Source: a virus
Length of the DNA stretch: 57,992 nt
IMG/VR virus record: IMGVR_UViG_3300031754_000006
Span: 1 to 57,992 of that record
Direction: 5' to 3' (one strand)
The notes under the pieces are model-generated. The model was not told the DNA's origin, made no database searches, and saw only the letters and a list, made by a program, of their open reading frames with translations. Position numbers and translations under genes: made by a program. Numbering within the stretch: the first letter of the stretch is position 1; each line of letters opens with the position of its first letter. This document shows positions 7,885 to 31,940 of this stretch, one piece after another.

Positions 7885-9876
7885 CTAGGCTGCGGCTTGC
7901 GGCATCTGTGTTCCTGCCGGGGGCATAAGCTGACTCTGTGGCGGCGGTGCCGGCACGCCCTGCCCAGGCTGCAACGCGCCCTGCTGCGGAGGCGGAGCAG
8001 CGGCCGCTTGTGCCATCGCACTCATCCGCTGCACCTGCCCAAGCCAGCCCCTAAGCAGTTCCAGCGTCTTCTCTGGCATGTTATTGGCCGCCCCGACGCT
8101 GTACTCCTGGATACCCAGCTTCGAGGCCATCGCCAGGTTCATATATGGGTCAGGTATCTGCGCCTTGCCCGTATCGATCATGGCGTCTATCTGCTGCATG
8201 ATCCAGTCCTCAGCCGCCCCCATGAGCGTCTGCACTTGCTGCAGGTCCGGGAAATCAAGCAGCCGCTGCCCTGTTTGCGCATCCACAAACCCGGCCTTAA
8301 TCAGATCCTGGATCGTAGCAAGCTTGCCCTGCGGCGTACTCGGCAGAGACGAAACAGGCGAGCACTTGAGGATATACTCGTCCTCATCCAGCTTGACCGC
8401 TCCCCAGTCGATCGTACGCAGGAACTTAGCACCTGGCATCGAAGCAGCAGCCACAGGCGCGCGCAGCTGATACTTGCCTTCCCGTTCAAAGATGTCCCGC
8501 ACCACATCTATCTGCAGCGCAGTGACATCCATATGCCAGGCTTCGTACTGCTGCCCGGCATACTGAAACCCTTCGTTCTCTATGTCGTGATAGACCCGCT
8601 GCGCTTCGCCAGAGTCGAGCCCGGCCGGCTTCTGCCCCACGGCGGAGAGCTGACTCAACCGCGCAATTTCAAACGCCCTCGCCTTGATTTTCTCGAAGTG
8701 CTCGAAATACTGATCATTCATGGCCGGCGGAGTCAGGAATTGCGGCGTCATGCTCCCCTTAGGGACGTGTAGAATGGTGCCGATCTTGTCCTGAAAGTGC
8801 TGATCCGGCACCGTCCCATTCTCTACGGCGATCCTGAACGCAGCCATGAGCCGGAAAGCACGCTGAAACATTATCAGGAGATGGTTCATCTCCACTTGCG
8901 ACCCGATCAGCTCCTGCGCCAGGCTGATCCCATGCCACCCATATATGCTGGGCTTCCACCGGTAGACTGCAAACGGAAAGCGCTTCTTGCGGTACGGCTC
9001 CCTGAGTAGGACCGCGTTATCAATTACGATCGTGTGCCAGCCATCCTTGGTCGGCTCCCCGTTCGCATCTAGCCCGCTGGGCAAATGCCAGCTCTCTGCC
9101 ACTGCCACCGTATCCGCTACGTACTGGTAACTGCCTCCTAGCTCATCGCGGCTGGAGATATGGCACTGCCTGATCGCGTCTGCCTTCTCCGGGAATGCCT
9201 CTAGCAGCCGCTGCCGATCTATGTTCTTGATCCGATGCATCTGCGTCGGGCAGCCGTAGAACCCATCCACTTCATCCACATACAATTCACTGGGCATCAC
9301 CCGTTCTGTTACGACGCGTCCAGTAACTGGATCCTCGAATACGTGGACGATGCCTTCGTTCAGGATCAGCGCATCACGGAAGTTATCCGGGCCCCGCTCA
9401 TCCATCTTGCATTCGTAGGCCATCCCGTCTGCAAACTGCGTGAGCTTCTTGGCACGCCGCTGCTGCCGATAGTCCCCACCCTGCGTCAGGAACATCGGCC
9501 GGATCTTGTTCTTAGTGATCTTGCTGATCAGCGTATCCGCTACGATCGCAATAACGTTGTACGTCAGCCGTCCGGTCAGGCTCGGGTGGATCGTATGCAG
9601 CCGGTCATAGCTCGCACCGAATGCAGACCCTGGTATCATCCCGCCGTAGAGCCGTGCGCATACTTGCCGCTGCTGCTCGAAAGCCAACTGCATGCGCCGT
9701 ATGTGCTCAACCGTCGCCTTGACTGAGCCTGGTATCTCTTCCTCTTTGAGATCCCACCAGCGCGCAGACGGGAGCGGGCCGTCATAGTCGTTGCGCTTCT
9801 TGCCCTTCTCCACCATCTCGCCCAACGTGCCATTGCCCTTGACGCCCGTCCCCTTGTCCACCCGCTTAATCGCCAT
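7885..9876 (-). CDS. Portal protein
   Basis: 663 aa, within the range for podovirus-type portals. The N-terminal part contains YDRLHTIHPSLTGRLTYNVI and the basic KITKNKIRPMFLT. The central part has SELYVDEVDGFYGCPTQMHR followed by KRFPFAVYRWKPSIYGWHGI and a long helix-rich stretch (AQELIGSQVEMNHLLIMFQ), a typical portal core. The C-terminus is Pro/Gln-rich (residues about 615-663). It would form the dodecameric DNA channel bound by the terminase encoded just upstream. Confidence 0.88.
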   Translation of the reverse strand: MAIKRVDKGTGVKGNGTLGEMVEKGKKRNDYDGPLPSARWWDLKEEEIPGSVKATVEHIRRMQLAFEQQRQVCARLYGGMIPGSAFGASYDRLHTIHPSLTGRLTYNVIAIVADTLISKITKNKIRPMFLTQGGDYRQQRRAKKLTQFADGMAYECKMDERGPDNFRDALILNEGIVHVFEDPVTGRVVTERVMPSELYVDEVDGFYGCPTQMHRIKNIDRQRLLEAFPEKADAIRQCHISSRDELGGSYQYVADTVAVAESWHLPSGLDANGEPTKDGWHTIVIDNAVLLREPYRKKRFPFAVYRWKPSIYGWHGISLAQELIGSQVEMNHLLIMFQRAFRLMAAFRIAVENGTVPDQHFQDKIGTILHVPKGSMTPQFLTPPAMNDQYFEHFEKIKARAFEIARLSQLSAVGQKPAGLDSGEAQRVYHDIENEGFQYAGQQYEAWHMDVTALQIDVVRDIFEREGKYQLRAPVAAASMPGAKFLRTIDWGAVKLDEDEYILKCSPVSSLPSTPQGKLATIQDLIKAGFVDAQTGQRLLDFPDLQQVQTLMGAAEDWIMQQIDAMIDTGKAQIPDPYMNLAMASKLGIQEYSVGAANNMPEKTLELLRGWLGQVQRMSAMAQAAAAPPPQQGALQPGQGVPAPPPQSQLMPPAGTQMPQAAA

Positions 9877-9879
9877 GAC

Positions 9880-10104
9880 TTAGACTTCCTCTTCCTTCGG
9901 CACACCGCCCACTGAGTGGAACAGGATCTCTTCGTCGGAGGGGACGCCCTCCTCCATGGCCTTGGCTATATCAGCCATGACTTTGATATCCGGAGTTGTG
10001 GCCTGGGGCTCAAACTCCATTTCTAGCCCCGAACACACAATCCGCCTGATGCCATGCTTCCGGCAGATCGGCGCGAGCGCCTCGATAAGGTCCACGTCTG
10101 TCAC
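9880..10104 (-). CDS. Hypothetical small acidic protein
   Basis: 74 aa, GTG start overlapping the upstream stop (GTGA), with GGAG 8 nt before it. Contains CRKHGIRRIVCSGLEMEFE and an acidic C-terminus ending KEEEV. No family recognised. It is embedded between the zinc-ribbon gene and the portal with 3-4 nt junctions. Confidence 0.55.
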   Translation of the reverse strand: MTDVDLIEALAPICRKHGIRRIVCSGLEMEFEPQATTPDIKVMADIAKAMEEGVPSDEEILFHSVGGVPKEEEV

Positions 10105-10406
10105 CTCTTGATCTCCACTGAGACGCGTCCATCTGCATGGCGCTGGATGCTGGGATTCTTACGCCGCCCGCCGATGCTGCCCTTGCCGATCGTCTTGAGC
10201 TTGCGGGGCGTGTTATGCGTGCCGTTGGGCAGCGTCCACTTGTACGAGACGCCTCCCGCAGTCCGAAAGTTCATGGCCGCTGCGCTAGGCTGCCGCTCCA
10301 TGTCTGCGCCGCACCGACAGAGCACCAAGGCGTTGCGCTCGTCCACGCTGCGCACCATCTCCCAAGCGGAGTCACATGCAGGGCATTTGTATTCGTATAG
10401 AGGCAT
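10101..10406 (-). CDS. FmdB-type zinc-ribbon protein
   Basis: 101 aa. Opens MPLYEYKCPACDSAWEM and continues with CRCGADMERQPS, giving the Cys-x2-Cys...Cys-x-Cys zinc ribbon of the FmdB-like family. The C-terminal half is basic (RKLKTIGKGSIGGRRKNPS). In phages such proteins are frequent near terminase and portal genes; their role is not established. Start and stop overlap the neighbours. Confidence 0.75.
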   Translation of the reverse strand: MPLYEYKCPACDSAWEMVRSVDERNALVLCRCGADMERQPSAAAMNFRTAGGVSYKWTLPNGTHNTPRKLKTIGKGSIGGRRKNPSIQRHADGRVSVEIKR

Positions 10407-10768
10407 CAGCTCTCATCGCAGAGGCAGTCTTCCTCGCTGACCCAGCCGCTGTAATCGGGCTCAGGAGCCTTAAGCGACATGGCCGCGATGCCTGGACCGT
10501 CCTCAGCCCGCAGGGCCTTCACGAGGGCATTTCCGGGCGCTACAAGGTCCTTATACGTATGGCTCGTCTGGCCCTGGTCCTTGACCCACTGGGCAATGAT
10601 GAGCGCAGCTTCCCGCTCGCGGTCCTTGATCCACTGCTCCTGTGCCTTGGCCAGCGCCTGGCCGCTCACGTCACGGCTATAGTCCTGCGGCGCCTGATGG
10701 GCCACGACGATATGACCAGCCATGAATTGCTCTGCCGCTGTCAGGCTTGGATCGATCTTGAACTTCAT
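10406..10768 (-). CDS. Hypothetical protein downstream of terminase
   Basis: 120 aa. The start at 10768 has a good GGGAGG site; an ATG 12 codons earlier overlaps the terminase stop (TAATG) and is an alternative. The sequence is helical and charged (ALAKAQEQWIKDREREAAL) with an acidic Cys-containing end (SEEDCLCDES). No family recognised. Confidence 0.55.
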   Translation of the reverse strand: MKFKIDPSLTAAEQFMAGHIVVAHQAPQDYSRDVSGQALAKAQEQWIKDREREAALIIAQWVKDQGQTSHTYKDLVAPGNALVKALRAEDGPGIAAMSLKAPEPDYSGWVSEEDCLCDES

Positions 10769-10803
10769 AGGGTGCCTCCCTCTGCGCGTGTGATAGCCGG
10801 CCA

Positions 10804-12312
10804 TTACAGTTCAATGCCTCCGCCAAAGTCCCAGGCTCCGATACCCCAGGCGTCTGCATCCTTGTCGTGCTTCTTGGTCTGCACCTCTAGCTGCGTGCGT
10901 TCAAACATCTTCCGTGTCTCAGCTCGCGCCCACTCAGGCGTGCCTGCCCTGGGAGGCTGCACAGGGACAATGGACGTCCAGGCCAAGCACTCACGGTAGG
11001 CGTAGAGCACAGCATCCGCGATATCCGAGTGATACTTGTCCGAGACGACACGGCGCTCAGGGGTGCTCTTATCCCGGTCCCATTCAACAAGCATCGCGTC
11101 CCGAGCAAAGCGGCCCGAGCCCTTGGCCATGAGGTGGCTTGTTCTTAGGGCATCGTTCAGCAGCTCTATATGCGTCTGCTTCTCTGCCTTCTGTGCCGCC
11201 TGGACCGGAAGCTTATGACGGGCTGCTAACTCCTCGGCCACCTTCTTGCCCACGCCGCCCGTGTCCATCACCATGGCCCGAATCTTCTTGGGCCCCAGCC
11301 GCTCGTATATCTCACGCACCTTGGAGGCTAGAGACGTGATGTCTTGCTTGGTGGTGACGTATTCCTCAGTCAGCCAAGTGCGCGGGTCTGCATCGTTCCA
11401 AGCGAGCACCGCGATCGCGTCTGCATCGTCAAAGCCCACGTCGATACCGATGCAGTACCACCAGTTTCCGGTTAGCGTGACAGGCAGCGAGGCAAAGTCG
11501 TTTAGGGCCTCGCTGTAACGGAATACCAGGCTGTTGACGTCGTGGATCCAGCGGCCAAAGAATTCCCGCTGAATGCTGGGCTCGTCTACCGCAACGCCCC
11601 TGCGCCTAAGCACGTCACCCAGAACGGCTGTATGTGTCTTGCCGCCGTTCTTGATCGGGATCCAGGGGTTATCAAAGAACGTCCAGCCGTGATGTGACCA
11701 CTCGGGCGATTGGGTGCATTCGTAGAAGTAGCCGATAGGCACAGCGCCCGGGGTGCCGACTAGCCAGACAGCGCCGTCCAGGTCGATAAGGCTGGGCTCT
11801 ATGACTTGGTCTACCAGCTCTTGAAGCAGCTCGGAGAAGTTCTGAGCTTCGTCCACGATAACGATGCCGCACTTATGGCCGCGCCTCTTCTTGGTCTTCC
11901 GCTCGTCACCTGCGCCGTGGAGTATAACTACCGAGCCATTGGGCAAGCGCAGTGTCAGATCGGAATCGTTGGGCTTGCCACCTAGGTTATGAGTCCGATT
12001 CAAGTTCAGGATAGCGGGCCATACGATCTGCTTTGCGTCGGTGCGGTCCAGGGTCAGATACATGGATACGGACTCTGGCTTACGTAGGGCACTATCGACT
12101 AGGGCGAAGGCACAACCCATGGTTTTGCCTGCACGGCGGCTGCAGACGGCAGTTTTGTAGCGGGCGGAGTCTAAGACAAAGGACCGCTGCGGGCCGAACA
12201 GGAGCACGTCAGGATCGAGCGGAGAAGTGCCATCGCATTCGAGTATAGCGCGCTCTTGGGCTAGCTCTTGCTGGAGCTTATCCAGCCTGGCGGCTGTTGC
12301 TGAATAGCTCAC
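10804..12312 (-). CDS. terL: Terminase large subunit
   Basis: 502 aa. It is the packaging ATPase and nuclease that translocates DNA into the prohead. Walker A is CSRRAGKT (residues 57-64) and Walker B is VIVDEA (151-156). The C-terminal nuclease has IGIDVGFDDADAIAV (Asp291), MVMDTGG (Asp350) and SDKYHSDIADAVLYAY (Asp430/Asp433). The GTG start overlaps the stop of the upstream gene. All motifs are present and correctly spaced. Confidence 0.93.
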   Translation of the reverse strand: MSYSATAARLDKLQQELAQERAILECDGTSPLDPDVLLFGPQRSFVLDSARYKTAVCSRRAGKTMGCAFALVDSALRKPESVSMYLTLDRTDAKQIVWPAILNLNRTHNLGGKPNDSDLTLRLPNGSVVILHGAGDERKTKKRRGHKCGIVIVDEAQNFSELLQELVDQVIEPSLIDLDGAVWLVGTPGAVPIGYFYECTQSPEWSHHGWTFFDNPWIPIKNGGKTHTAVLGDVLRRRGVAVDEPSIQREFFGRWIHDVNSLVFRYSEALNDFASLPVTLTGNWWYCIGIDVGFDDADAIAVLAWNDADPRTWLTEEYVTTKQDITSLASKVREIYERLGPKKIRAMVMDTGGVGKKVAEELAARHKLPVQAAQKAEKQTHIELLNDALRTSHLMAKGSGRFARDAMLVEWDRDKSTPERRVVSDKYHSDIADAVLYAYRECLAWTSIVPVQPPRAGTPEWARAETRKMFERTQLEVQTKKHDKDADAWGIGAWDFGGGIEL

Positions 12313-12614
12313 GCTGGGACGAGGGCCTTATTTGTGCTGGGCGCGGCTACAGGCTGCATCTTCTGCATGCGGAGCTTGGCTAGCTCCTCCTCCATGAATG
12401 CGAGGCGGCGCTCTGTATCCATTTCCTGCATGAGCTGGGAGAGGCAGCGCAGGCCGTATATCCAAACACGGCCACGGTCAGGCTCGATCTTGCCGTGCTC
12501 GACCTTACGGCAAGCGCGGGCTAGGTTACGCTTAACGTCTTCCAGGGTCTGAAGGTTGCCATAGCGCCGTCTGGGCATGACAATCGATGTCTGGGCTGGA
12601 TCGTTAGATGGCAT
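12309..12614 (-). CDS. Hypothetical protein upstream of terL, small-terminase candidate
   Basis: 101 aa; it overlaps terL by 4 nt. A basic helical N-terminal half (LQTLEDVKRNLARACRKVEH) is followed by an oligomerisation-type helix (RRLAFMEEELAKLRMQKMQ). Size, helical content and coupling to terL would suit a small terminase subunit, but no defined family motif is visible. No strong Shine-Dalgarno lies before the start, so the start is uncertain. Confidence 0.5.
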   Translation of the reverse strand: MPSNDPAQTSIVMPRRRYGNLQTLEDVKRNLARACRKVEHGKIEPDRGRVWIYGLRCLSQLMQEMDTERRLAFMEEELAKLRMQKMQPVAAPSTNKALVPA

Positions 12615-12646
12615 CTCGGTTTATTGTGATTCGCGCTACAGATTAT

Positions 12647-12877
12647 CTAAAGGCCGCTCCTATATTCCTTGGCTGGCGGGCTACACTGTTGGTTAAGCTC
12701 GATGACCTTATCGCGGGTGCGGGTTTCGTTGCTCTCTGCCTCTGAGAGTTGAGAGCGACATTTGTTTAGCTCGACCTCAGCAAGGGCAAGATTATGGCGG
12801 AGCATGGCAGCGTTGCTCTTGGCTTCCTTCCATAGGGTCACGGCTGCGGCTAGCTCTTCGAATTGCTCGGGGGTCAT
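12647..12877 (-). CDS. Small coiled-coil protein
   Basis: 76 aa. The ATG at 12877 overlaps the upstream stop (ATGA), which decides the start over an ATG 25 codons earlier. The whole sequence is one predicted helix with heptad character (LRHNLALAEVELNKCRSQL, then SEAESNETRTRDKVIEL). Function unknown. Confidence 0.55.
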   Translation of the reverse strand: MTPEQFEELAAAVTLWKEAKSNAAMLRHNLALAEVELNKCRSQLSEAESNETRTRDKVIELNQQCSPPAKEYRSGL

Positions 12878-13146
12878 GCTTTGGCCGTGGGCTTGGAGGG
12901 CGGGGGCTGCGCTTGAGGCTTGGGTGCCTCTTCGATCTCTACATCGCAGCAAGAGATCTTGTGCCAGGGGACTAGAACGATCTTGGGCTTGCTGTATTCT
13001 GAGAAAGTCACCAAGAGGCCGTGGGTGCTGGCTTCGAGGGCGAGGGCATAGGGGAGGGTAGGGTTGGGGACGAGGGTCATGCCCATACGGCCTCCGAGCT
13101 TGTTAATGCCCTCGCTGAATGTAACGGCTGTGATCTTGAGGCTCAT
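12874..13146 (-). CDS. Hypothetical beta-rich protein
   Basis: 90 aa, start at 13146 overlapping the GNAT gene stop (ATGA). Strand-like segments (MSLKITAVTFSEGINKLGG, LLVTFSEYSKPKIVLVPWHK) are followed by a Pro/Lys tail. The phrase IVLVPWHKISCCDVE resembles small membrane-proximal or RNA-binding phage proteins of unknown role. No family assigned. Confidence 0.5.
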   Translation of the reverse strand: MSLKITAVTFSEGINKLGGRMGMTLVPNPTLPYALALEASTHGLLVTFSEYSKPKIVLVPWHKISCCDVEIEEAPKPQAQPPPSKPTAKA

Positions 13147-14831: not shown

Positions 14832-14859
14832 TGTATATACCGTCCATTGTATTTGTAAA
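14832..14859 (-). promoter_or_regulatory. Sigma70-like promoter
   Basis: On the minus strand TTTACA and TATACA are separated by 16 nt, close to the -35/-10 consensus. It lies between the hairpin that ends the array and the start of the 150-aa gene, giving a leader of about 35 nt with a good ribosome-binding site. Confidence 0.5.
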
Positions 14860-14895
14860 GCCCCTTACACATGTGCAGTACCATATGTAAGGGGC
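14860..14895 (-). other. Long hairpin at the 3' end of array 1
   Basis: A 10-bp perfect stem (GCCCCTTACA/TGTAAGGGGC) with a 16-nt loop. It follows the last pentamer of the array in the direction of transcription. On the minus strand CTTTAC follows the stem, a sequence also seen after the hairpin that follows array 2. It could be a terminator with a poor T tract, an RNA end-protecting structure or a processing site. Confidence 0.55.
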
Positions 14896-15295
14896 GCCTT
14901 GCTTTACTCGCCCTTGCACGTCCGCTCCGGGCCTTGCCTGCCTTGCCCATCCCCGCTTTACCACCCCTGACCTTGCCTGACCTCACCTGACCTTGCCTGC
15001 TGCGTTTAGCCTGTCCCTACCAAGCCAACCCAAGCCGGGCCAAGCCTGCTCTGCTACGCCTGTCCTTGCCCCTCCAGACCTTTCCTTACGCTGCCTGCCT
15101 TGCCTGCACTACCACGCCGATCCATGCCTAGCCGATCCGCGCCTTGCCTGCTCTGCCGTCCCGAGTTTGGCCGTTCCATTCTCGGCTCTGCCTGCATTGC
15201 CAGCCCTGTCCAAGCCTCTCCACTCACAGCCTCGCCTGCTTAGCCCAGCCTATCCGTACCTAACCGATCTCGACTTTGCCTGCCTTGCCCCACTG
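14896..15295 (-). repeat. Degenerate pentamer array 1 (NNNGG units with GCAGG hinges)
   Basis: About 400 nt without a gene. On the minus strand the sequence is a run of pentamers ending in GG. GCAGG occurs nine times, preceded by a 4-nt spacer (CTAA, CAAT, CAGA, CAAG and similar). In plus coordinates the hinges (CCTGC) are at 14937, 14996, 15045, 15094, 15103, 15147, 15191, 15235 and 15279. Distances are 59, 49, 49, 9, 44, 44, 44, 44, every one 5n+4. It begins right after the stop of the DUF433 gene and ends at a hairpin. Period 5 and stops in all frames exclude a protein-coding reading. Function unknown. Confidence 0.9.
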
Positions 15296-15502
15296 CTAGG
15301 GCTCACGGATCATCTGCATGGTTGTCCACGCTGCCAGTGAGCCTTCTATGTCTTCACGCGTCAGAGCCGGGTAATCCTCTAGGAGGGTTTCTATCGACTC
15401 TCCCTTGCGAAGCCTCCTGGCCACAAACTCCAAATGGATACGGGTCCCCTCAAAGACTGGCTCACCTCCCTGCACCTTCGGATTACATACTATCGCCTTC
15501 AT
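15296..15502 (-). CDS. DUF433-family antitoxin-like protein
   Basis: 68 aa, full length for the family. KVQGGEPVFEGTRIHLEFV and the C-terminal LTREDIEGSLAAWTTMQ helix are the signature of the DUF433 (VapB45-like) fold, a small winged helix-turn-helix usually paired with a PIN toxin. No PIN gene is next to it, so it is an orphan and may act as a regulator. Its stop codon forms the first bases of the array-1 leader. Confidence 0.75.
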   Translation of the reverse strand: MKAIVCNPKVQGGEPVFEGTRIHLEFVARRLRKGESIETLLEDYPALTREDIEGSLAAWTTMQMIREP

Positions 15503-22731: not shown

Positions 22732-22994
22732 AGCTGGAGACCATCCAGGCCATCTGCGAGGTGGCCAACGAAGCCGAGGCCCATGCTGTCCTGGACAGCT
22801 ACTGGAACGACCTCCAGTGCCTCGGGGGCCGTGTGCTGCCCCCTGCCTTTGGCCGCCCTGAGTGGCGAGTGCAAGTCTTCTTCCCGGCCGAGGGCGTGCC
22901 CAAGGAGCTGCCCCTCCCTGCCGGTGTAACCCGCCTCACCATCCCTGCCGCCCTGCGGCGCATCTACGGAATCTTGGAGGTCGTGTGTCCGTGA
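22728..22994 (+). CDS. Hypothetical protein (88 aa)
   Basis: Overlaps the upstream stop by 4 nt. Mixed alpha/beta with a hydrophobic centre (GRPEWRVQVFFPAEGVPKEL). No family recognised. Its end overlaps the start of the first Cys/His microprotein. Confidence 0.5.
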   Translation: MKLETIQAICEVANEAEAHAVLDSYWNDLQCLGGRVLPPAFGRPEWRVQVFFPAEGVPKELPLPAGVTRLTIPAALRRIYGILEVVCP

Positions 22995-23206
22995 GCGAGC
23001 CCAGCAAATTCGATATGTGCGTCTGCGGCTGGACTCGGGTGCAGCACTGCGCCAAGGAGCCCCATCCCTGCTCGCACACGGTCTGTCGCTGTAAGGGATT
23101 CACACTCGCAAAGGGCAGTAATTACGATCTTACCGTCACTGGCGCGGTACGCAATAACCGCGACCTAGAAAATGCATCCTATCACACGCACGGCGGCTAT
23201 CACTAA
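22985..23206 (+). CDS. Cys/His microprotein, paralog 1
   Basis: 73 aa from a GTG at 22985 (GGAGG 4 nt upstream; a GTG at 22991 overlapping the previous stop is an alternative). FDMCVCGWTRVQHCAKEPHP followed by CSHTVCRCKGF gives the pattern C-x-C-G-W-x-R-x-Q-H-C-x4-P-H-x-C-x-H-x2-C-x-C, enough ligands for two zinc ions. Four more members lie at 25776-26870. The C-terminal half is His/Asn-rich and unlike the others. Function unknown. Confidence 0.65.
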   Translation: MSVSEPSKFDMCVCGWTRVQHCAKEPHPCSHTVCRCKGFTLAKGSNYDLTVTGAVRNNRDLENASYHTHGGYH

Positions 23207-23661: not shown

Positions 23662-24369
23662 ATGGCATTCGCAGCTAAGCAAAAGGTCGAGATTACTCCC
23701 CCCAATCTCCAGCTAGTCAAGTTCCGGATCATCGGCACTAGTCCACTCGTCCAAAACAAGTTCAGCAGCCGCGCCCTGGAGGCCATGGCCGCCGATCAGC
23801 GCCTCGGCTCCGCCGCCGTGAAGCGCAAGAAGCGCGAGCCCAAGGACTTCGACCTGGCCGTCAAGGAGGCCACCCACTACGCCGATGCCGGCTGGTGCGG
23901 CCTCCCGGCCTCGGCCTTCCGCACGGGCCTCATCTCCACTTGCCGCCTCCTGGGTTTTCCGATGACTTTGGCCAAATTATCGGTATTTGTCGTCGCCGAT
24001 GGCTACGAGCGCGACAGATTCGGAGTGACGCCACTCGTCCGGATCACCAAGGGCAAGCCCGAGCGCACTGACTTTGCCGTGCGCAACGCCACGGGCGTAG
24101 CCGATATCCGCCCCCGCCCCATGTGGCCCGAAGGCTGGGAGGCGGTCATCTCCATTCGCTTCGACGCTGATCAGTTCACCGTGCAGGACGTGACCAACCT
24201 GCTATCCCGCATGGGCGAGCAGGTGGGGATCGGCGCGGGGCGGCACGACTCCAAGGACTCGGCCGGCATGGGCTGGGGCTGCTTCCGGATCGCCGATACC
24301 GTGGGCGGGGAGGCGCCTACCAAGAAGACCAGGGCGCCCAAGGAAGCAGTACAGGAGGAGGTTGGCTAA
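23662..24369 (+). CDS. Conserved-type phage protein with Gly-rich C-terminal signature
   Basis: 235 aa. Begins with a strand-rich segment (LQLVKFRIIGTSPLVQNKFS). The middle includes GLPASAFRTGLISTCRLLGF. Near the C-terminus is RMGEQVGIGAGRHDSKDSAG followed by MGWGCFRI. The order of a TSPL-type strand, a central helical region and a terminal Gly-rich loop is reminiscent of RAMP/Cas7-like RNA-binding folds, but this is a weak resemblance and no Cas neighbour exists. It is followed directly by the 157-aa gene and array 2. Confidence 0.55.
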   Translation: MAFAAKQKVEITPPNLQLVKFRIIGTSPLVQNKFSSRALEAMAADQRLGSAAVKRKKREPKDFDLAVKEATHYADAGWCGLPASAFRTGLISTCRLLGFPMTLAKLSVFVVADGYERDRFGVTPLVRITKGKPERTDFAVRNATGVADIRPRPMWPEGWEAVISIRFDADQFTVQDVTNLLSRMGEQVGIGAGRHDSKDSAGMGWGCFRIADTVGGEAPTKKTRAPKEAVQEEVG

Positions 24370-24843
24370 ATGCCAAGCGCAGCAGCCAAGCGGCTCAAGC
24401 GGGCCCGTACCCAGTCCATCCATGATGAGCTGGCCAACCTTTACCGATTGCATGGAGGTCTCAAGCCCGACGTGATCGTTGCCTGGGCTAAGAATAACCC
24501 TGCCAGCATCCTGCATTCTAAGTTTACGTGGGATGACAGTGAGGCTGCCAAGTCTTACCGCCTTTGGCAGGCGCGGCAGATTATCACAGAAGTAGAGGTG
24601 CAATACCCGGACGGCCATATACGGCGTGTGTATGTTTCGCCGATGGAGTCTCGCGGCACCCGAGGATATGCGACCTTGGTTGACGTTTTGTCCGATGAGG
24701 AGCGGCGAATTCAATATCTGCAACAGGCATATTCTGAGCTGGAGCGCACCGCCGCAAAATATCAGGACCTTGTGGAATTTGCTGGAGTCCGCAGGGCGAT
24801 TCGGGCTGCCGGCAGGAAACTGCCGAAGGCCAACAAGGAGTAG
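24370..24843 (+). CDS. Hypothetical early phage protein of a recurring family
   Basis: 157 aa, starting directly after the upstream stop. LANLYRLHGGLKPDVIVAWA, HSKFTWDDSEAAKSYRLWQA and DVLSDEERRIQYLQQAYSEL form a helical pattern found in many phage proteins of unknown function. The basic C-terminus (AIRAAGRKLPKANKE) suggests nucleic-acid contact. Its TAG stop is the first codon of the array-2 leader. Confidence 0.6.
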   Translation: MPSAAAKRLKRARTQSIHDELANLYRLHGGLKPDVIVAWAKNNPASILHSKFTWDDSEAAKSYRLWQARQIITEVEVQYPDGHIRRVYVSPMESRGTRGYATLVDVLSDEERRIQYLQQAYSELERTAAKYQDLVEFAGVRRAIRAAGRKLPKANKE

Positions 24844-25680
24844 CAGTAGGGGCAAGGTTGAGCTGCGCAGGCTAGGCGCGGAGAAGTCTGGTGAGGACGA
24901 GTGTGGAGCAGCGCGGTCGGGTTAGGCCAAGCAGGCGAGGAATGGACCGGTAACGAGAGGCAGAGATAAGCATGGCAGGTGGAGCAAGGACGTGTAAAGC
25001 CCGGGGCGGGCTGGCACGGCAGGCTGAACCTGGATAGGGTGGGCGAGGTGTGGTCGAGCCTGGACAAGCAGGCGTAGCATCGTACGGGTCGGCAAGGATA
25101 GGCGAGGCCAAGCAGGCCGGGAGTGGTAAGGCTCGCAAGGGCAGGGCTGCGCTGCGCGCGGAAGAGCAGGCAGAGCTAGGATTTGTACGGCATGGAGAGG
25201 CCCGGAGAAGCAAAGCAGGCAAGGAGCGGTAAGGGTCGGAGCCGTTAGGCAGAGCAGGCTTGGCTCGGGTCGGCTTGGGCAGGGTCGGAGCGGCTGGGCA
25301 ATTCAATGCAGGTTAAGCGTGGTGAAGCAGAGGGAGGCAAGGACTGGAACGGGATGGCTGAGCAATGCAGGCACGGACAGGTGAGGTATGGCACGGCACG
25401 GCACGCTAGGGCAAAGCAGGCACGGACAGGACCGGTAAGGTATGGAGCGGCACGTCGAGGCAAAGCAGGTCGAGCTTGGACCGGGATGGCGCGGTCAGGT
25501 GAAGCGTGGCGGGGCCAGGTCTGGCAGGCGTAGCAAGCAGTAAAGGGCAAGGCCAGGAGTGGACGCGATAGGCCAGGTGCAGCAGGCGCGGATCGGCAAA
25601 GCAGAGTGCGGGTCGGACGAGCACGGCAGGCGCGGATAGGTAAGGAAGAGGTCGGCGAGGGGAAGCACAGCAGGCTAAGG
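24844..25680 (+). repeat. Degenerate pentamer array 2 (NNNGG units with GCAGG hinges)
   Basis: About 840 nt without a gene. Pentamers ending in GG follow one another; the last G is almost invariant. The hinge, a 4-nt spacer (CAAA, CAAT, CACG, CCAA and similar) plus GCAGG, recurs at 24867, 24931, 24975, 25019, 25068, 25112, 25166, 25215, 25254, 25308, 25367, 25416, 25465, 25524, 25582, 25626 and 25670. Intervals are 64, 44, 44, 49, 44, 54, 49, 39, 54, 59, 49, 49, 59, 58, 44, 44: all 5n+4 except 58, which contains a second 4-nt step. Two further GCAGG occurrences (25141, 25279) are not preceded by a spacer. Same architecture and polarity relative to transcription as array 1. Function unknown. 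Confidence 0.9.
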
Positions 25681-25683
25681 AAT

Positions 25684-25709
25684 CCGTCAGCGCAATTGTG
25701 CATTGACGG
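25684..25709. promoter_or_regulatory. Nested palindrome after array 2
   Basis: Outer arms CCGTCA/TGACGG enclose GCGCAATTGTGC, itself a near-perfect palindrome centred on AATT. It lies immediately after the last pentamers and before a longer hairpin. It could be a protein-binding site or part of an RNA 3' structure. Confidence 0.45.
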
Positions 25710-25712
25710 CCA

Positions 25713-25755
25713 GGGGAGTCCGTAAACGACGATATCGCCCCGTAGCGGACTCCCC
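25713..25755 (+). other. Long hairpin at the 3' end of array 2
   Basis: Perfect 10-bp stem GGGGAGTCCG/CGGACTCCCC with a 23-nt loop. GCTTTAC follows the stem; CTTTAC also follows the hairpin after array 1. The next start codon is 20 nt downstream, so it could also shape the leader of the Cys/His microprotein cluster. No T run, so a simple terminator is unlikely. Confidence 0.55.
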
Positions 25756-25775: not shown

Positions 25776-26048
25776 ATGGCAGATAAAAAGCTTACCCCCT
25801 TCGATATGTGCGAGTGCGGTTGGACGCGCGTCCAGCACTGCGCCAGGGCTCCGCATCGGTGTACGCACCCGGGATGCTATTGCGTGGCGTTCAAGCTCTC
25901 TTCTGAGCCTGAACTTGACCGGCTGGATGAAGCCATCCGCACCACAAAGGCCCTGGCGCGGGCGCGGTTCTTTCCTGGGCTCGGACTGCGCGCAGATAGT
26001 ATCGATTACTTCATCAAGTGCGGTATTGAGCCCCTGGAGGAAAGCTAG
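25776..26048 (+). CDS. Cys/His microprotein, paralog 2
   Basis: 90 aa with AGGAAG before the ATG. FDMCECGWTRVQHCARAPHR then CTHPGCYCVAF gives the full C-x-C-G...H-C...H-x-C-x-H-x3-C-x-C pattern (the spacing varies by one residue among the copies). The acidic/helical tail (ELDRLDEAIRTTKALARARF, then FPGLGLRADS) matches the tail of paralog 3 in part. First gene after array 2. Confidence 0.65.
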   Translation: MADKKLTPFDMCECGWTRVQHCARAPHRCTHPGCYCVAFKLSSEPELDRLDEAIRTTKALARARFFPGLGLRADSIDYFIKCGIEPLEES

Positions 26049-26050
26049 CC

Positions 26051-26305
26051 ATGGCCGAAAGCCCATTTGATATGTGTCTCTGTGGCTGGAGCAGGATCCA
26101 GCACTGCGCTACCCCTCCGCATCCCTGCACACATGAGCGCTGTTGGTGTAAGGCATTTTGCTTCGCCCCCAATCACCCCCCCAAAGTTTCGGCTATCAAG
26201 GATGAGATGGATATGGCAGGCGCCAGGTTTTTTGACAGGTTTGGGTTGTACAGCGCTCCAGACGCAAAAACGCTGATCGCGCAAGGATTTACGCCTAAAG
26301 ACTAA
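26051..26305 (+). CDS. Cys/His microprotein, paralog 3
   Basis: 84 aa, GGAGGAAAGC upstream, 2 nt after paralog 2. FDMCLCGWSRIQHCATPPHP and CTHERCWCKAF repeat the family pattern. The tail (DMAGARFFDRFGLYSAPDAK) resembles the tail of paralog 2 (ARFFPGLGLRADS), indicating a duplication of the whole gene. Confidence 0.65.
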   Translation: MAESPFDMCLCGWSRIQHCATPPHPCTHERCWCKAFCFAPNHPPKVSAIKDEMDMAGARFFDRFGLYSAPDAKTLIAQGFTPKD

Positions 26306-26404: not shown

Positions 26405-26674
26405 ATGAGCAAAGATCGCAAAGACACCGATGACCCGAGGGCATCCGATCTGTGCGCCGTGTGTCTGGGATCAGCCGACAATAACGGCGCCCCCAGGTGG
26501 CGTCACTGCGCCAAGCCTCCCCATAAGTGCAGCGTTTGTGACGTATGCCCAGGATTCCAGTACGGCGGCCGAGCACAGGCTATCCATCGCGCGCGGTGGG
26601 CCGAACACGTAGAGCATTACGTGGAGAAGGGCCATCCCCGCGAACAGGTCGAGTTGGCCATCAAAGGTGAATAA
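26405..26674 (+). CDS. Cys/His microprotein, paralog 4 (divergent)
   Basis: 89 aa; the start at 26405 has CGGAG upstream. DLCAVCLGSADNNGAPRWRH followed by CAKPPHKCSVCDVCPGF keeps the Cys pairs, the HCA-x2-PH core and the terminal Cys pair, with a longer first loop. The C-terminal part is helical (WAEHVEHYVEKGHPREQVEL). Confidence 0.6.
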   Translation: MSKDRKDTDDPRASDLCAVCLGSADNNGAPRWRHCAKPPHKCSVCDVCPGFQYGGRAQAIHRARWAEHVEHYVEKGHPREQVELAIKGE

Positions 26675-26675
26675 C

Positions 26676-26870
26676 ATGCGCCTATCTGAGACCAAGCCGG
26701 AAGACGATCCCGGGCTGGCCATGCCAAAGGGGCAGGAGCCCCACAAAACGGACGTTTGTGAGTGTACCGGCTTTAGGGATGAGCACTGCCTAGAAAAACC
26801 ACATCCGTGTCCTTGTGGCTGTAAGGCATTTAGATTTAGATCGAGATGGATAACCTTTGAAGGTGAGTGA
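26676..26870 (+). CDS. Cys/His microprotein, paralog 5 (divergent)
   Basis: 64 aa from the ATG at 26676 with AAAGGTG upstream. DVCECTGFRDEHCLEKPHPC followed by PCGCKAFRF retains the C-x-C, H-C, P-H-x-C and C-x-C elements in a shorter frame. The acidic N-terminal segment is unrelated to the other members. Confidence 0.6.
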   Translation: MRLSETKPEDDPGLAMPKGQEPHKTDVCECTGFRDEHCLEKPHPCPCGCKAFRFRSRWITFEGE

Positions 26871-26873
26871 ATT

Positions 26874-27200
26874 ATGACTAAAAAGTATATGACCGAAGCC
26901 GAGGCCCGAGAGAAGGGCAAGAGCCTTGCCGAGCGGTTCAAGAAGGCCGCTGCTGAGGCTGCTGCCGAGGGCGACGAAGACGTGGGCGATGTCCTGGCTG
27001 ACCTGGGAGAGCTGACTACAGCTGTGGTCGAGAAACGCATGCCGGGCAAGCTCAAGAGCACTCGCGTAGGCGTTATGTCCGTGAAAATGGAGGAAGGGGA
27101 GGCGGATACCGCGCACGACCCGAGCACCTGCCTCAAGTGCCAGAAGATGGCGGCTGAGCTGCTGAGCCCGGGTGGCATCCCGGCCATGGGTAAGGCATGA
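26874..27200 (+). CDS. Hypothetical helical protein
   Basis: 108 aa. Ala/Glu/Lys-rich N-terminal helix (EAREKGKSLAERFKKAAAEA) and a Cys-x2-Cys (STCLKCQKMAAELL). No family recognised. It overlaps the Gam-like gene by 4 nt. Confidence 0.5.
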   Translation: MTKKYMTEAEAREKGKSLAERFKKAAAEAAAEGDEDVGDVLADLGELTTAVVEKRMPGKLKSTRVGVMSVKMEEGEADTAHDPSTCLKCQKMAAELLSPGGIPAMGKA

Positions 27201-27745
27201 GTGACGAACAGGCAGCGGCATATGAGGACGACGAGCGGCCCGAGGTTAAGGGCCCGTGGCGCATCCAAAGCCTAGCCGATCTAGATTGGGCCCTGGAGCG
27301 GCTAGGCGCCTTGGAGGCTGAACGGGTAAGCGTCATCGCTCAAGGCGAGGCCGCCTGCAAACGCATCTGGGACCGGGCCGACGTTCTCACCGAACGACTC
27401 GGACGCGGGGCTGCATTCTTCGAGGCCAAGATCGAGGAGTACGCGCAAGGCAATAAAGATGCGCTCCTGGGCGGAGGCAAGCGCAAGAGTCGAGACGTTC
27501 TGTTTGGCCGCGTAGGTTGGCGGGAGCATCCGGGGCATATCCATGTGACCGACGAAGCAGCTTTAAAGAAATGGCTAGCCGCCCAAGAGAATGAATCTCT
27601 TTACCGGACAAAGATCGTCCCGAAGATGTTTGAGCTAAATCAGCTGTATGATGCAGACGGCACTATCCCTCCCGGCTGTGAATACAAGGCCGCCGAGGAC
27701 GTGTTTTACATAGATCCCAAGCCGCTTGAGGAGGAGCCGAAATGA
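27197..27745 (+). CDS. Mu Gam-like host-nuclease inhibitor
   Basis: 182 aa, normal for the family. LADLDWALERLGALEAERVS and the long antiparallel helices around GRGAAFFEAKIEEYAQGNKD, then DVLFGRVGWREHPG and ALKKWLAAQENESLYRTKIV, follow the Mu Gam plan. The family binds double-stranded DNA ends as a Ku-like dimer and blocks exonucleases. It sits just before the ERF annealing gene, as expected for a phage recombination module. Confidence 0.8.
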   Translation: MSDEQAAAYEDDERPEVKGPWRIQSLADLDWALERLGALEAERVSVIAQGEAACKRIWDRADVLTERLGRGAAFFEAKIEEYAQGNKDALLGGGKRKSRDVLFGRVGWREHPGHIHVTDEAALKKWLAAQENESLYRTKIVPKMFELNQLYDADGTIPPGCEYKAAEDVFYIDPKPLEEEPK

Positions 27746-28212
27746 CCCTTGAGCAGTTCATGGAGCGCGTCTCACCCGAGCCCAATACCGGCTGTTGGTT
27801 ATGGACTGCAGCCATGGCGGGGAACGGCTATCCAATGGCTTGGCATGATGGCAAAGTACGGCTTGCTACTAGGATTAGCCTGATGTTGCATGGGCGCGCC
27901 CCAAGGGATGCCAAGGAATGCGCAATGCACCGTTGCGATACACCCCTCTGTGTAAATCCGAGTCATCTGTTTCTTGGTACGCAGCTAGATAACATCCGCG
28001 ACATGGACGCAAAGGGGCGGCGGGGTTACGCGCATGTTTATGGCGAGCGCCAAGGACTGTCGAAACTCACCGAGGCTCAGGTGCGTGAGATCCGCGCTCT
28101 TAGTGCTGCGGGCTGGACGCAAATCGCTCTTGGGCTCAGATATGGCATAGATAATTCAACCGTTGCTCAGATCGTTCATCGCAGGACATGGCGTCACCTT
28201 CCATCGGAGTAA
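27742..28212 (+). CDS. HNH endonuclease with C-terminal helix-turn-helix
   Basis: 156 aa. [12 protein letters not shown] opens the domain; the HNH core is HRCDTPLCVNPSHLFLGTQ with the zinc-binding Cys residues. The C-terminal part (LTEAQVREIRALSAAGWTQI) is a helix-turn-helix of the type found in free-standing homing nucleases. It sits between the Gam-like and ERF genes and may be a mobile insertion. A second relative is at 33559. Confidence 0.8.
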   Translation: MTLEQFMERVSPEPNTGCWLWTAAMAGNGYPMAWHDGKVRLATRISLMLHGRAPRDAKECAMHRCDTPLCVNPSHLFLGTQLDNIRDMDAKGRRGYAHVYGERQGLSKLTEAQVREIRALSAAGWTQIALGLRYGIDNSTVAQIVHRRTWRHLPSE

Positions 28213-31827: not shown

Positions 31828-31901
31828 ACCCATGTAGCTCAACGGTAAAGCCCAGCCCGCCTTCAAGCTGGAGACTGCGGGTTCAAGTCCCGCCGTGGGC
31901 C
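31828..31901 (+). tRNA. tRNA-like gene with an enlarged anticodon loop
   Basis: Acceptor ACCCATG pairs with CGTGGGC except for an A-C mismatch at 1-72. The D-arm region is TAGCTCAACGGTAAAGC and the T-arm GCGGG-TTCAAGT-CCCGC is perfect. The anticodon stem CCAGC/GCTGG encloses ten nucleotides (CCGCCTTCAA) instead of seven, and base 26 seems missing. It resembles bacterial tRNA-Gly elsewhere. The isotype cannot be assigned; TCA and TTC are possible readings. It may be a degenerate or specialised tRNA. Confidence 0.6.
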
Positions 31902-31940
31902 CTTCACACGCAACACGCGGCGCATTTAAGGAGGCACCAA

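What the first reader, a model, noticed from the sequence alone, without database searches (positions are those of the whole stretch)
24867..25674. Phase rule: hinges are spaced 5n+4 in array 2
GCAGG hinges preceded by a 4-nt spacer (often CAAA/CAAT) recur at intervals 64, 44, 44, 49, 44, 54, 49, 39, 54, 59, 49, 49, 59, 58, 44, 44. Fifteen of sixteen equal 4 modulo 5. Each superunit is therefore GCAGG, a variable number of NNNGG units, then one 4-nt unit that resets the register. Number of pentamers varies but the one-base slip does not, which points to a reader that recognises modules and a joint, rather than to a fixed-length unit.
Basis: seen in the sequence. Interest (0 to 1): 0.85.

Follow-up and report, generated by a model that had tools for sequence, protein, structure and literature searches.

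The report
Phage guide-RNA array with 4-base punctuation
This phage carries next to a CRISPR-like (Cas7-type) protein gene a long row of short guide sequences built from five-base modules, each guide closed by the fixed four-base mark CAGG that shifts the rhythm by one base; it is a member of the newly described VIPR family, in which phages use such guides to silence rival phages.

Summary
The phase rule is real. A second array (15297-14897, - strand) obeys it 8 of 8. In 59 arrays from 46 vipr-linked loci, found by protein, 306 of 340 register slips are 4-mers and 271 of those are CAGG. The gene before the array (23662-24369) is a Cas7/Csm3-like RAMP, a relative of the experimentally studied Vipr protein of phage SUSP1. 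Vipr relatives in other phages and genomes have same-strand arrays in 43 of 52 loci (0 of 52 on the other strand) and a conserved partner gene in 46 of 52. This is the VIPR system of a 2026 preprint (PMC13142463): vrRNAs of YNNGG repeats whose NN pairs read DNA with a one-base skip. CAGG is best read as guide-to-guide punctuation. One guide of relative Mycobacterium phage Quico matches 19 of 20 nt in the Che8 tape-measure gene under that rule, skipping wobble bases. No certain target was found for the window's own guides.

The parts
23662..24369 (+). vipr-like gene: 235-aa Cas7/Csm3-like RAMP protein with G-rich loop GIGAGRHDSKDSAGMGWGCF
   Evidence: AlphaFold model pLDDT 80; Foldseek PDB hits are Csm3/Cas7 RAMP subunits, E 4e-6 to 1e-4; profile match to SUSP1 Vipr, E 2.8e-6 in a pairwise comparison; alignment A1
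24370..24843 (+). conserved partner gene (157 aa, phrog_15946), candidate vipr-accessory protein (vap) of this clade
   Evidence: phrog_15946 E 1.3e-18; homologue near vipr in 46 of 52 loci; no match to SUSP1 vap1
24848..25680 (+). array 2: about 16 head-to-tail guides of NNN(G/A)G pentamers, 7-12 pentamers each, separated by CAGG
24867..24871 (+). first hinge GCAGG; the other guide-bounding hinges start at 24931, 24975, 25019, 25068, 25112, 25166, 25215, 25254, 25308, 25367, 25416, 25465, 25524, 25582, 25626, 25670
25670..25674 (+). last hinge, closing the array (17 hinges bracket 16 guides)
25685..25755 (+). two strong hairpins directly after the array, terminator-like but without a T run
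   Evidence: -36.8 kcal/mol, z -4.25; the T-run terminator scan did not list it
14897..15297 (-). array 1: second array of the same make, about 8 guides, 9.5 kb away on the other strand, with no vipr of its own beside it
14859..14897 (-). hairpin GGCGCCCCTTACA...TGTAAGGGGC after array 1 (seen in the sequence, not folded)

Best explanation
The array is a set of guide RNAs (vrRNAs) of a VIPR system, laid out head to tail. The vipr gene beside it makes a Cas7-like RAMP subunit; one subunit binds one pentamer, gripping the constant (G/A)G plus next base and presenting the two variable bases. Subunits stack along a guide, and the exposed dinucleotides pair with DNA of a rival phage in steps of three bases, skipping one base each step, so as to repress it. 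CAGG is punctuation: it ends one guide and starts the next, and because it is one base short it throws the pentamer register off, so that a filament laid on one guide cannot run on into the next. The pentamer just before CAGG is a near-constant handle that does not pair. Shown here: the repeat grammar, the hinge and its spread, the RAMP fold, the linkage of gene and array, variability confined to bases 2-3 of each module, and one natural target under the skip rule in a relative. Taken from the preprint: RNA expression, binding and repression (measured in the SUSP1 and P. fulva systems). Inferred: one subunit per pentamer, the role of the hinge as boundary, and the rival-silencing role in this phage.
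For: RAMP fold: the first 50 Foldseek PDB hits are Csm3/Cas7-type CRISPR subunits or chains containing them; G-loop conserved across 22 homologues; homology to SUSP1 Vipr over the C-terminal 55 columns, and SUSP1 itself carries YNNGG arrays beside that gene. Linkage: same-strand array within about 2 kb in 43 of 52 vipr loci, opposite strand 0 of 52; partner gene in 46 of 52. Code-like variation: entropy 1.93 and 1.98 bits at bases 2 and 3 against 1.28, 0.86, 0.60 at bases 1, 4, 5. Hinge: 306 of 340 slips are 4-mers, 271 of them CAGG; hinge-to-hinge length peaks at 8-11 modules; only the module before the hinge is clearly conserved within arrays at bases 2-3 (identity 0.54-0.57, against 0.35-0.41 in the one before it and 0.22-0.34 elsewhere). 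Target: Quico guide AA TT AT TT TT AT GC CC TC (AT) matches 19 of 20 nt in Che8 gp14 (9469-13035) at 10431-10460, skip bases on codon third positions; skip rules 0, 2 and 3 give no comparable match for any of 27 guides; order-shuffled versions never exceed score 15 against 18. Quico's own allele at that site matches only 14 of 20.
Against: No convincing target for the window's own guides: one 20-nt exact match (guide at 25469-25523 to L148:5166-5195) is near chance level, is not wobble-aligned, and no other window guide hits that contig; two other window guides gave nothing and a fourth gave one AT-rich sequence present in two contigs, at chance level. The single strong target lies in a phage whose Vipr is only 30% identical. 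No expression data. The structured 3' tail of SUSP1 vrRNAs was not seen here. The window's modules are looser (base 1: C 45%, A 23%, T 20%; base 4: G 69%, A 23%) than YNNGG.
Confidence: 0.87

Rival explanations
1. The array is a protein-binding DNA region (iteron- or centromere-like) whose 5-bp modules present half-turn-spaced sites on double-stranded DNA, with CAGG as a phasing spacer.
For: Tandem short modules and a noncoding position between genes.
Against: Average spacing including hinges is about 4.9 bp, so the phase drifts away from, not towards, a 10.5-bp turn; arrays lie on the same strand as vipr in 43 loci and on the opposite strand in none, as expected for RNA and not for DNA sites; bases 2-3 are near-random; the adjacent protein is an RNA-binding RAMP by fold.
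Confidence: 0.05
2. CAGG hinges are not guide borders but internal joints: each mature vrRNA spans two or more superunits (staggered, overlapping guides), the slip resetting register inside one RNA.
For: [quoted passage not shown] S18, not readable here), and SUSP1 vrRNAs are about 100 nt, longer than most superunits here.
Against: Guide length between hinges (7-13 modules, mode 10) fits the 9-16 repeats of a complete vrRNA; the Quico-Che8 match covers the nine modules between hinges and stops at the pre-hinge module; the pre-hinge modules are the conserved ones.
Confidence: 0.2
3. A decaying microsatellite: replication slippage of a GGNNN unit without function.
For: Some near-duplicate superunits (25367 and 25416) show duplication by recombination.
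Against: Two variable bases are near-random while the other three and a 4-nt hinge are kept across phyla; slippage would give identical neighbours and 0 mod 5 intervals.
Confidence: 0.01
4. The G-rich modules titrate a host RNA-binding protein such as CsrA (GGA motifs) or bind a TRAP-like ring (NAGNN repeats at 5-nt spacing).
For: Five-nucleotide spacing resembles TRAP sites (own knowledge).
Against: The base after GG is C more often than A; no Rfam match; a RAMP gene, not a CsrA or TRAP gene, is linked across loci.
Confidence: 0.02

Closest known systems
VIPR systems (Viral Interference Programmable Repeat; PMC13142463), as a whole
   Same: Cas7-like Vipr protein, tandem 5-nt repeats with two hypervariable bases, phage location, small accessory gene, arrays flanking vipr; in a relative, a one-base-skip target in a rival phage.
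   Different: Here guides are packed head to tail with an invariant CAGG hinge and a one-base register slip; module consensus is looser; partner gene is not detectably related to SUSP1 vap1; a second array lies 9.5 kb away on the other strand.
VIPR type II of Escherichia phage SUSP1
   Same: RAMP gene plus small gene plus YNNGG arrays; C-terminal G-loop region alignable.
   Different: SUSP1 vrRNAs are separate units of about 11-16 repeats each followed by a conserved non-repeat tail (preprint); no CAGG hinge.
VIPR 'staggered arrays with overlapping vrRNAs' (preprint fig. S18, not readable here)
   Same: Possibly the same architecture: register-shifted neighbouring guides.
   Different: Cannot be compared; the main text gives no hinge motif.
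Class 1 CRISPR-Cas arrays and Cas7/Csm3
   Same: RAMP fold; guides bracketed by a constant element; variable stretch carries the target information.
   Different: No identical long repeats with spacers; constant element is 4-9 nt; the code is interleaved rather than contiguous.

Membership tests
VIPR (PMC13142463) | Vipr: minimal RAMP with G-loop | tested here: met
   Foldseek Csm3/Cas7 hits, G-loop alignment, profile match to SUSP1 Vipr
VIPR (PMC13142463) | noncoding array of alternating GGY/NN (YNNGG) motifs beside vipr | tested here: met
   same-strand arrays in 43 of 52 loci; column entropies; the window itself is looser, NNN(G/A)G; the preprint allows 'a related consensus'
VIPR (PMC13142463) | 9-16 repeats per vrRNA | tested here: inconclusive
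   mostly 7-13 modules between hinges, mode 10; RNA ends unknown
VIPR (PMC13142463) | NN dinucleotides match DNA targets with a one-base skip, mostly on wobble positions | tested here: inconclusive
   Met once in relative Quico against Che8; not shown for the window's guides
VIPR (PMC13142463) | small accessory gene (vap) beside vipr | tested here: met
   phrog_15946 gene in 46 of 52 loci; not related to SUSP1 vap1 by profile, so which vap class it is stays open
VIPR (PMC13142463) | Vipr binds the vrRNA and represses the target | not testable with these tools
   needs experiment
VIPR type II (SUSP1 clade) | invariable structured 3' tail after the repeats of each vrRNA | tested here: not met
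   guides follow one another with only CAGG between them; array RNA as a whole not more structured than shuffles, z -0.76
CRISPR-Cas | identical repeats of 21-40 nt with spacers | tested here: not met
   no such direct repeats in the array
CRISPR-Cas | adaptation genes cas1/cas2 beside the array | not tested
   not searched for specifically

The most novel reading that the evidence does not exclude
CAGG is an RNA punctuation mark read through the RAMP filament itself: a module one base short stops subunit stacking and sets guide length, so a single transcript holds many guides without repeats, tails or ribozymes. This would be a distinct VIPR architecture with guide borders made by a frameshift in a protein-RNA register.
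Probability: 0.4. Interest if true: 0.8.

Novelty: new member of a known kind. Interest (0 to 1): 0.62.

Why it matters
It gives a compact grammar (CAGG plus n modules) by which guides of this VIPR branch can be parsed automatically, so that targets can be decoded at scale. It places the system in cultured phages (Mycobacterium Cheoctovirus such as Quico, Saal, Brocalys; Gordonia phages UmaThurman, ODay, Pipp) that can be tested in standard laboratory hosts, and offers one concrete prediction: Quico silences the tape-measure gene of Che8-type rivals while sparing its own allele. How guides are delimited without repeats or tails becomes directly testable.

Tried and rejected
Rfam and phage BLAST with the array: nothing useful. 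Target search among sibling phages and array-bearing contigs: no match above control skip rules. Exact scans of IMG/VR with window guides: none; one near-chance hit; one AT-rich sequence in two contigs, at chance level. Conserved mycobacteriophage guide AT TC AT GC TT AG AT TG GC: no mycobacteriophage target. Bradyrhizobium genus and Azohydromonas family genomes for one guide each: none. Gordonia UmaThurman guide to Che8 gp57 (8 modules): judged a low-complexity coincidence, the site is a tandem repeat. Dinucleotide usage of guides against codon positions 1-2: best of the six frames by correlation (r 0.54) but no better than uniform by KL distance, so not used as support. Reversed sequence as a null for array detection: unusable because GG is its own mirror. 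Self-targets of the window guides in the window: none perfect.

Full report
WHAT IS IN THE SEQUENCE. The window is a whole IMG/VR virus record of 57,992 bases. On its + strand, 24848-25680 is a run of pentamers ending in GG or AG. A segmentation that allows 4-mers reads it as 5-mers NNN(G/A)G interrupted by the tetramer CAGG. GCAGG occurs 19 times; 15 of 18 raw intervals are 4 mod 5, P 1.4e-8. Simulated unslipped arrays give mostly 0 mod 5 and a quarter as many GCAGGs. A second array, 15297-14897 on the - strand, gives 8 of 8.

NEIGHBOURHOOD. Array 2 follows two genes on the same strand: a 235-aa protein (23662-24369) and a 157-aa protein (24370-24843), and is followed by two strong hairpins. 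The first protein has no Pfam match and belongs to phrog_4652. Its AlphaFold model (pLDDT 80) matches Cas7/Csm3 subunits of type III and VII CRISPR complexes in the PDB (best E 4e-6; the first 50 hits are RAMP subunits or RAMP-containing chains). The alignment of 22 homologues keeps a glycine-rich loop G(V/I)GxGRxDSxxSxGxGWGxF.

RELATIVES. Homologues were found by protein, independently of the repeat: 25 IMG/VR loci, 23 loci in genomes from many phyla, and named phages, namely Cyanophage Cy-LDV1, 25 Mycobacterium records (Cheoctovirus in those opened) and 5 Gordonia records. In 43 of 52 loci examined an array lies on the same strand within about 2 kb, in none on the opposite strand; a homologue of the second protein is present in 46 of 52. 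Across 59 arrays, 306 of 340 register slips are 4-mers and 271 are CAGG. Bases 2 and 3 of the module are near-random, bases 1, 4 and 5 constrained; only the module before the hinge is clearly conserved at bases 2-3 within an array. A separate pattern scan returned at least 119 further IMG/VR stretches with CAGG-(NNNRG)8-CAGG; these were chosen by pattern and are not used for the statistics.

KNOWN SYSTEM. A literature search found a 2026 preprint, PMC13142463: VIPR systems, in which a phage-encoded RAMP, Vipr, uses vrRNAs of 9-16 YNNGG repeats; the NN pairs recognise DNA with a one-base skip, mostly on codon third positions; targets are mostly rival phages and satellites; seven types exist, some with 'staggered arrays with overlapping vrRNAs'. 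SUSP1, its model phage, was read here: its 200-aa RAMP gene and YNNGG arrays lie together, and the profile of our family matches that protein over the C-terminal 55 columns (E 2.8e-6). SUSP1 guides are separate and carry a non-repeat tail; the hinge is absent. The 157-aa partner is not detectably related to SUSP1 vap1.

TARGET TEST. 27 guides of Mycobacterium and Gordonia phages were compared with 25 phage genomes (about 1.3 Mb) under skips of 0-3 bases. Under skip 1 the best score is 18 (nine consecutive perfect modules): Quico guide AA TT AT TT TT AT GC CC TC, in Che8 gp14, which I take to be the tape-measure gene from its length and position (the record calls it hypothetical). The tenth, pre-hinge module matches one of two bases. 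Skipped bases fall on codon third positions (computed from the gene start, 9469). Other skips reach at most 15; 400 order-shuffled versions reach at most 15. Quico's own allele matches 14 of 20. Two other IMG/VR contigs carry the same peptide and differ from Che8 within the matched stretch only at skipped bases, though this follows partly from how they were found. This is one hit; it shows the code in a distant relative (30% identical Vipr), not in the window.

WINDOW TARGETS. Four window guides were searched in IMG/VR. Results are at chance level; the best (L148) matches 21 of 22 nt but roughly 0.1-0.3 such hits are expected by chance (own estimate), and the skip bases are not on the wobble positions of the ORF listed there. 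A window target is therefore not shown.

READING OF THE HINGE. Facts: constant CAGG, one base short; near-constant module before it; mostly 7-13 modules between hinges; the match ends at the pre-hinge module in the one good target. Inference: CAGG plus the pre-hinge module is a short handle that delimits guides, and the missing base prevents the subunit filament from continuing. The rival that one vrRNA spans several superunits remains open (0.2).

VERDICT. The thing is a VIPR-type guide array, a new member of a known (very recent) kind; the hinge grammar is not described in the preprint's main text, but may be in its supplement, which could not be read here.

Noticed in passing
window 22985-23110, 25795-25900, 26060-26170, 26430-26560, 26750-26840 (+): Five small neighbouring proteins share a Cys/His pattern such as FDMCxCGWxRxQHCAxxPHPCxHxxCxCKxF and look like tandem paralogues of a zinc-binding protein around the VIPR locus (read by eye).
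   Followed up: no
window 15297-15502 (-): The gene directly before array 1 encodes a protein that reads like a DUF433 antitoxin (GGEPVFEGTRIHLEFVARRLRKGESIETLLEDYPALTREDI); judged by eye.
   Followed up: no
window 31828-31902 (+): One tRNA gene whose anticodon ARAGORN cannot assign (anticodon given as 'tc').
   Followed up: no
window 27197-27745 and 27742-28212 (+): Mu Gam-like end-protection protein followed by an HNH endonuclease (phrog matches).
   Followed up: no
L150, L178-L181 (Mycobacterium phages Brocalys, ByChance, Donkeykong, Saal, Quico), upstream of vipr: Closely related phages share the last short segment and one conserved guide (AT TC AT GC TT AG AT TG GC) but have gained, lost or swapped other guides, a natural record of guide turnover.
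   Followed up: partly
L124 and L127 arrays: Close relatives of the window's system use ACAAGGCAGG joints without a net register slip beside normal CAGG hinges.
   Followed up: no
L141 arrays: Arrays whose modules are mostly CNNAG rather than CNNGG, hinged by CAAAGCAGG, suggesting a Vipr with changed module preference.
   Followed up: no
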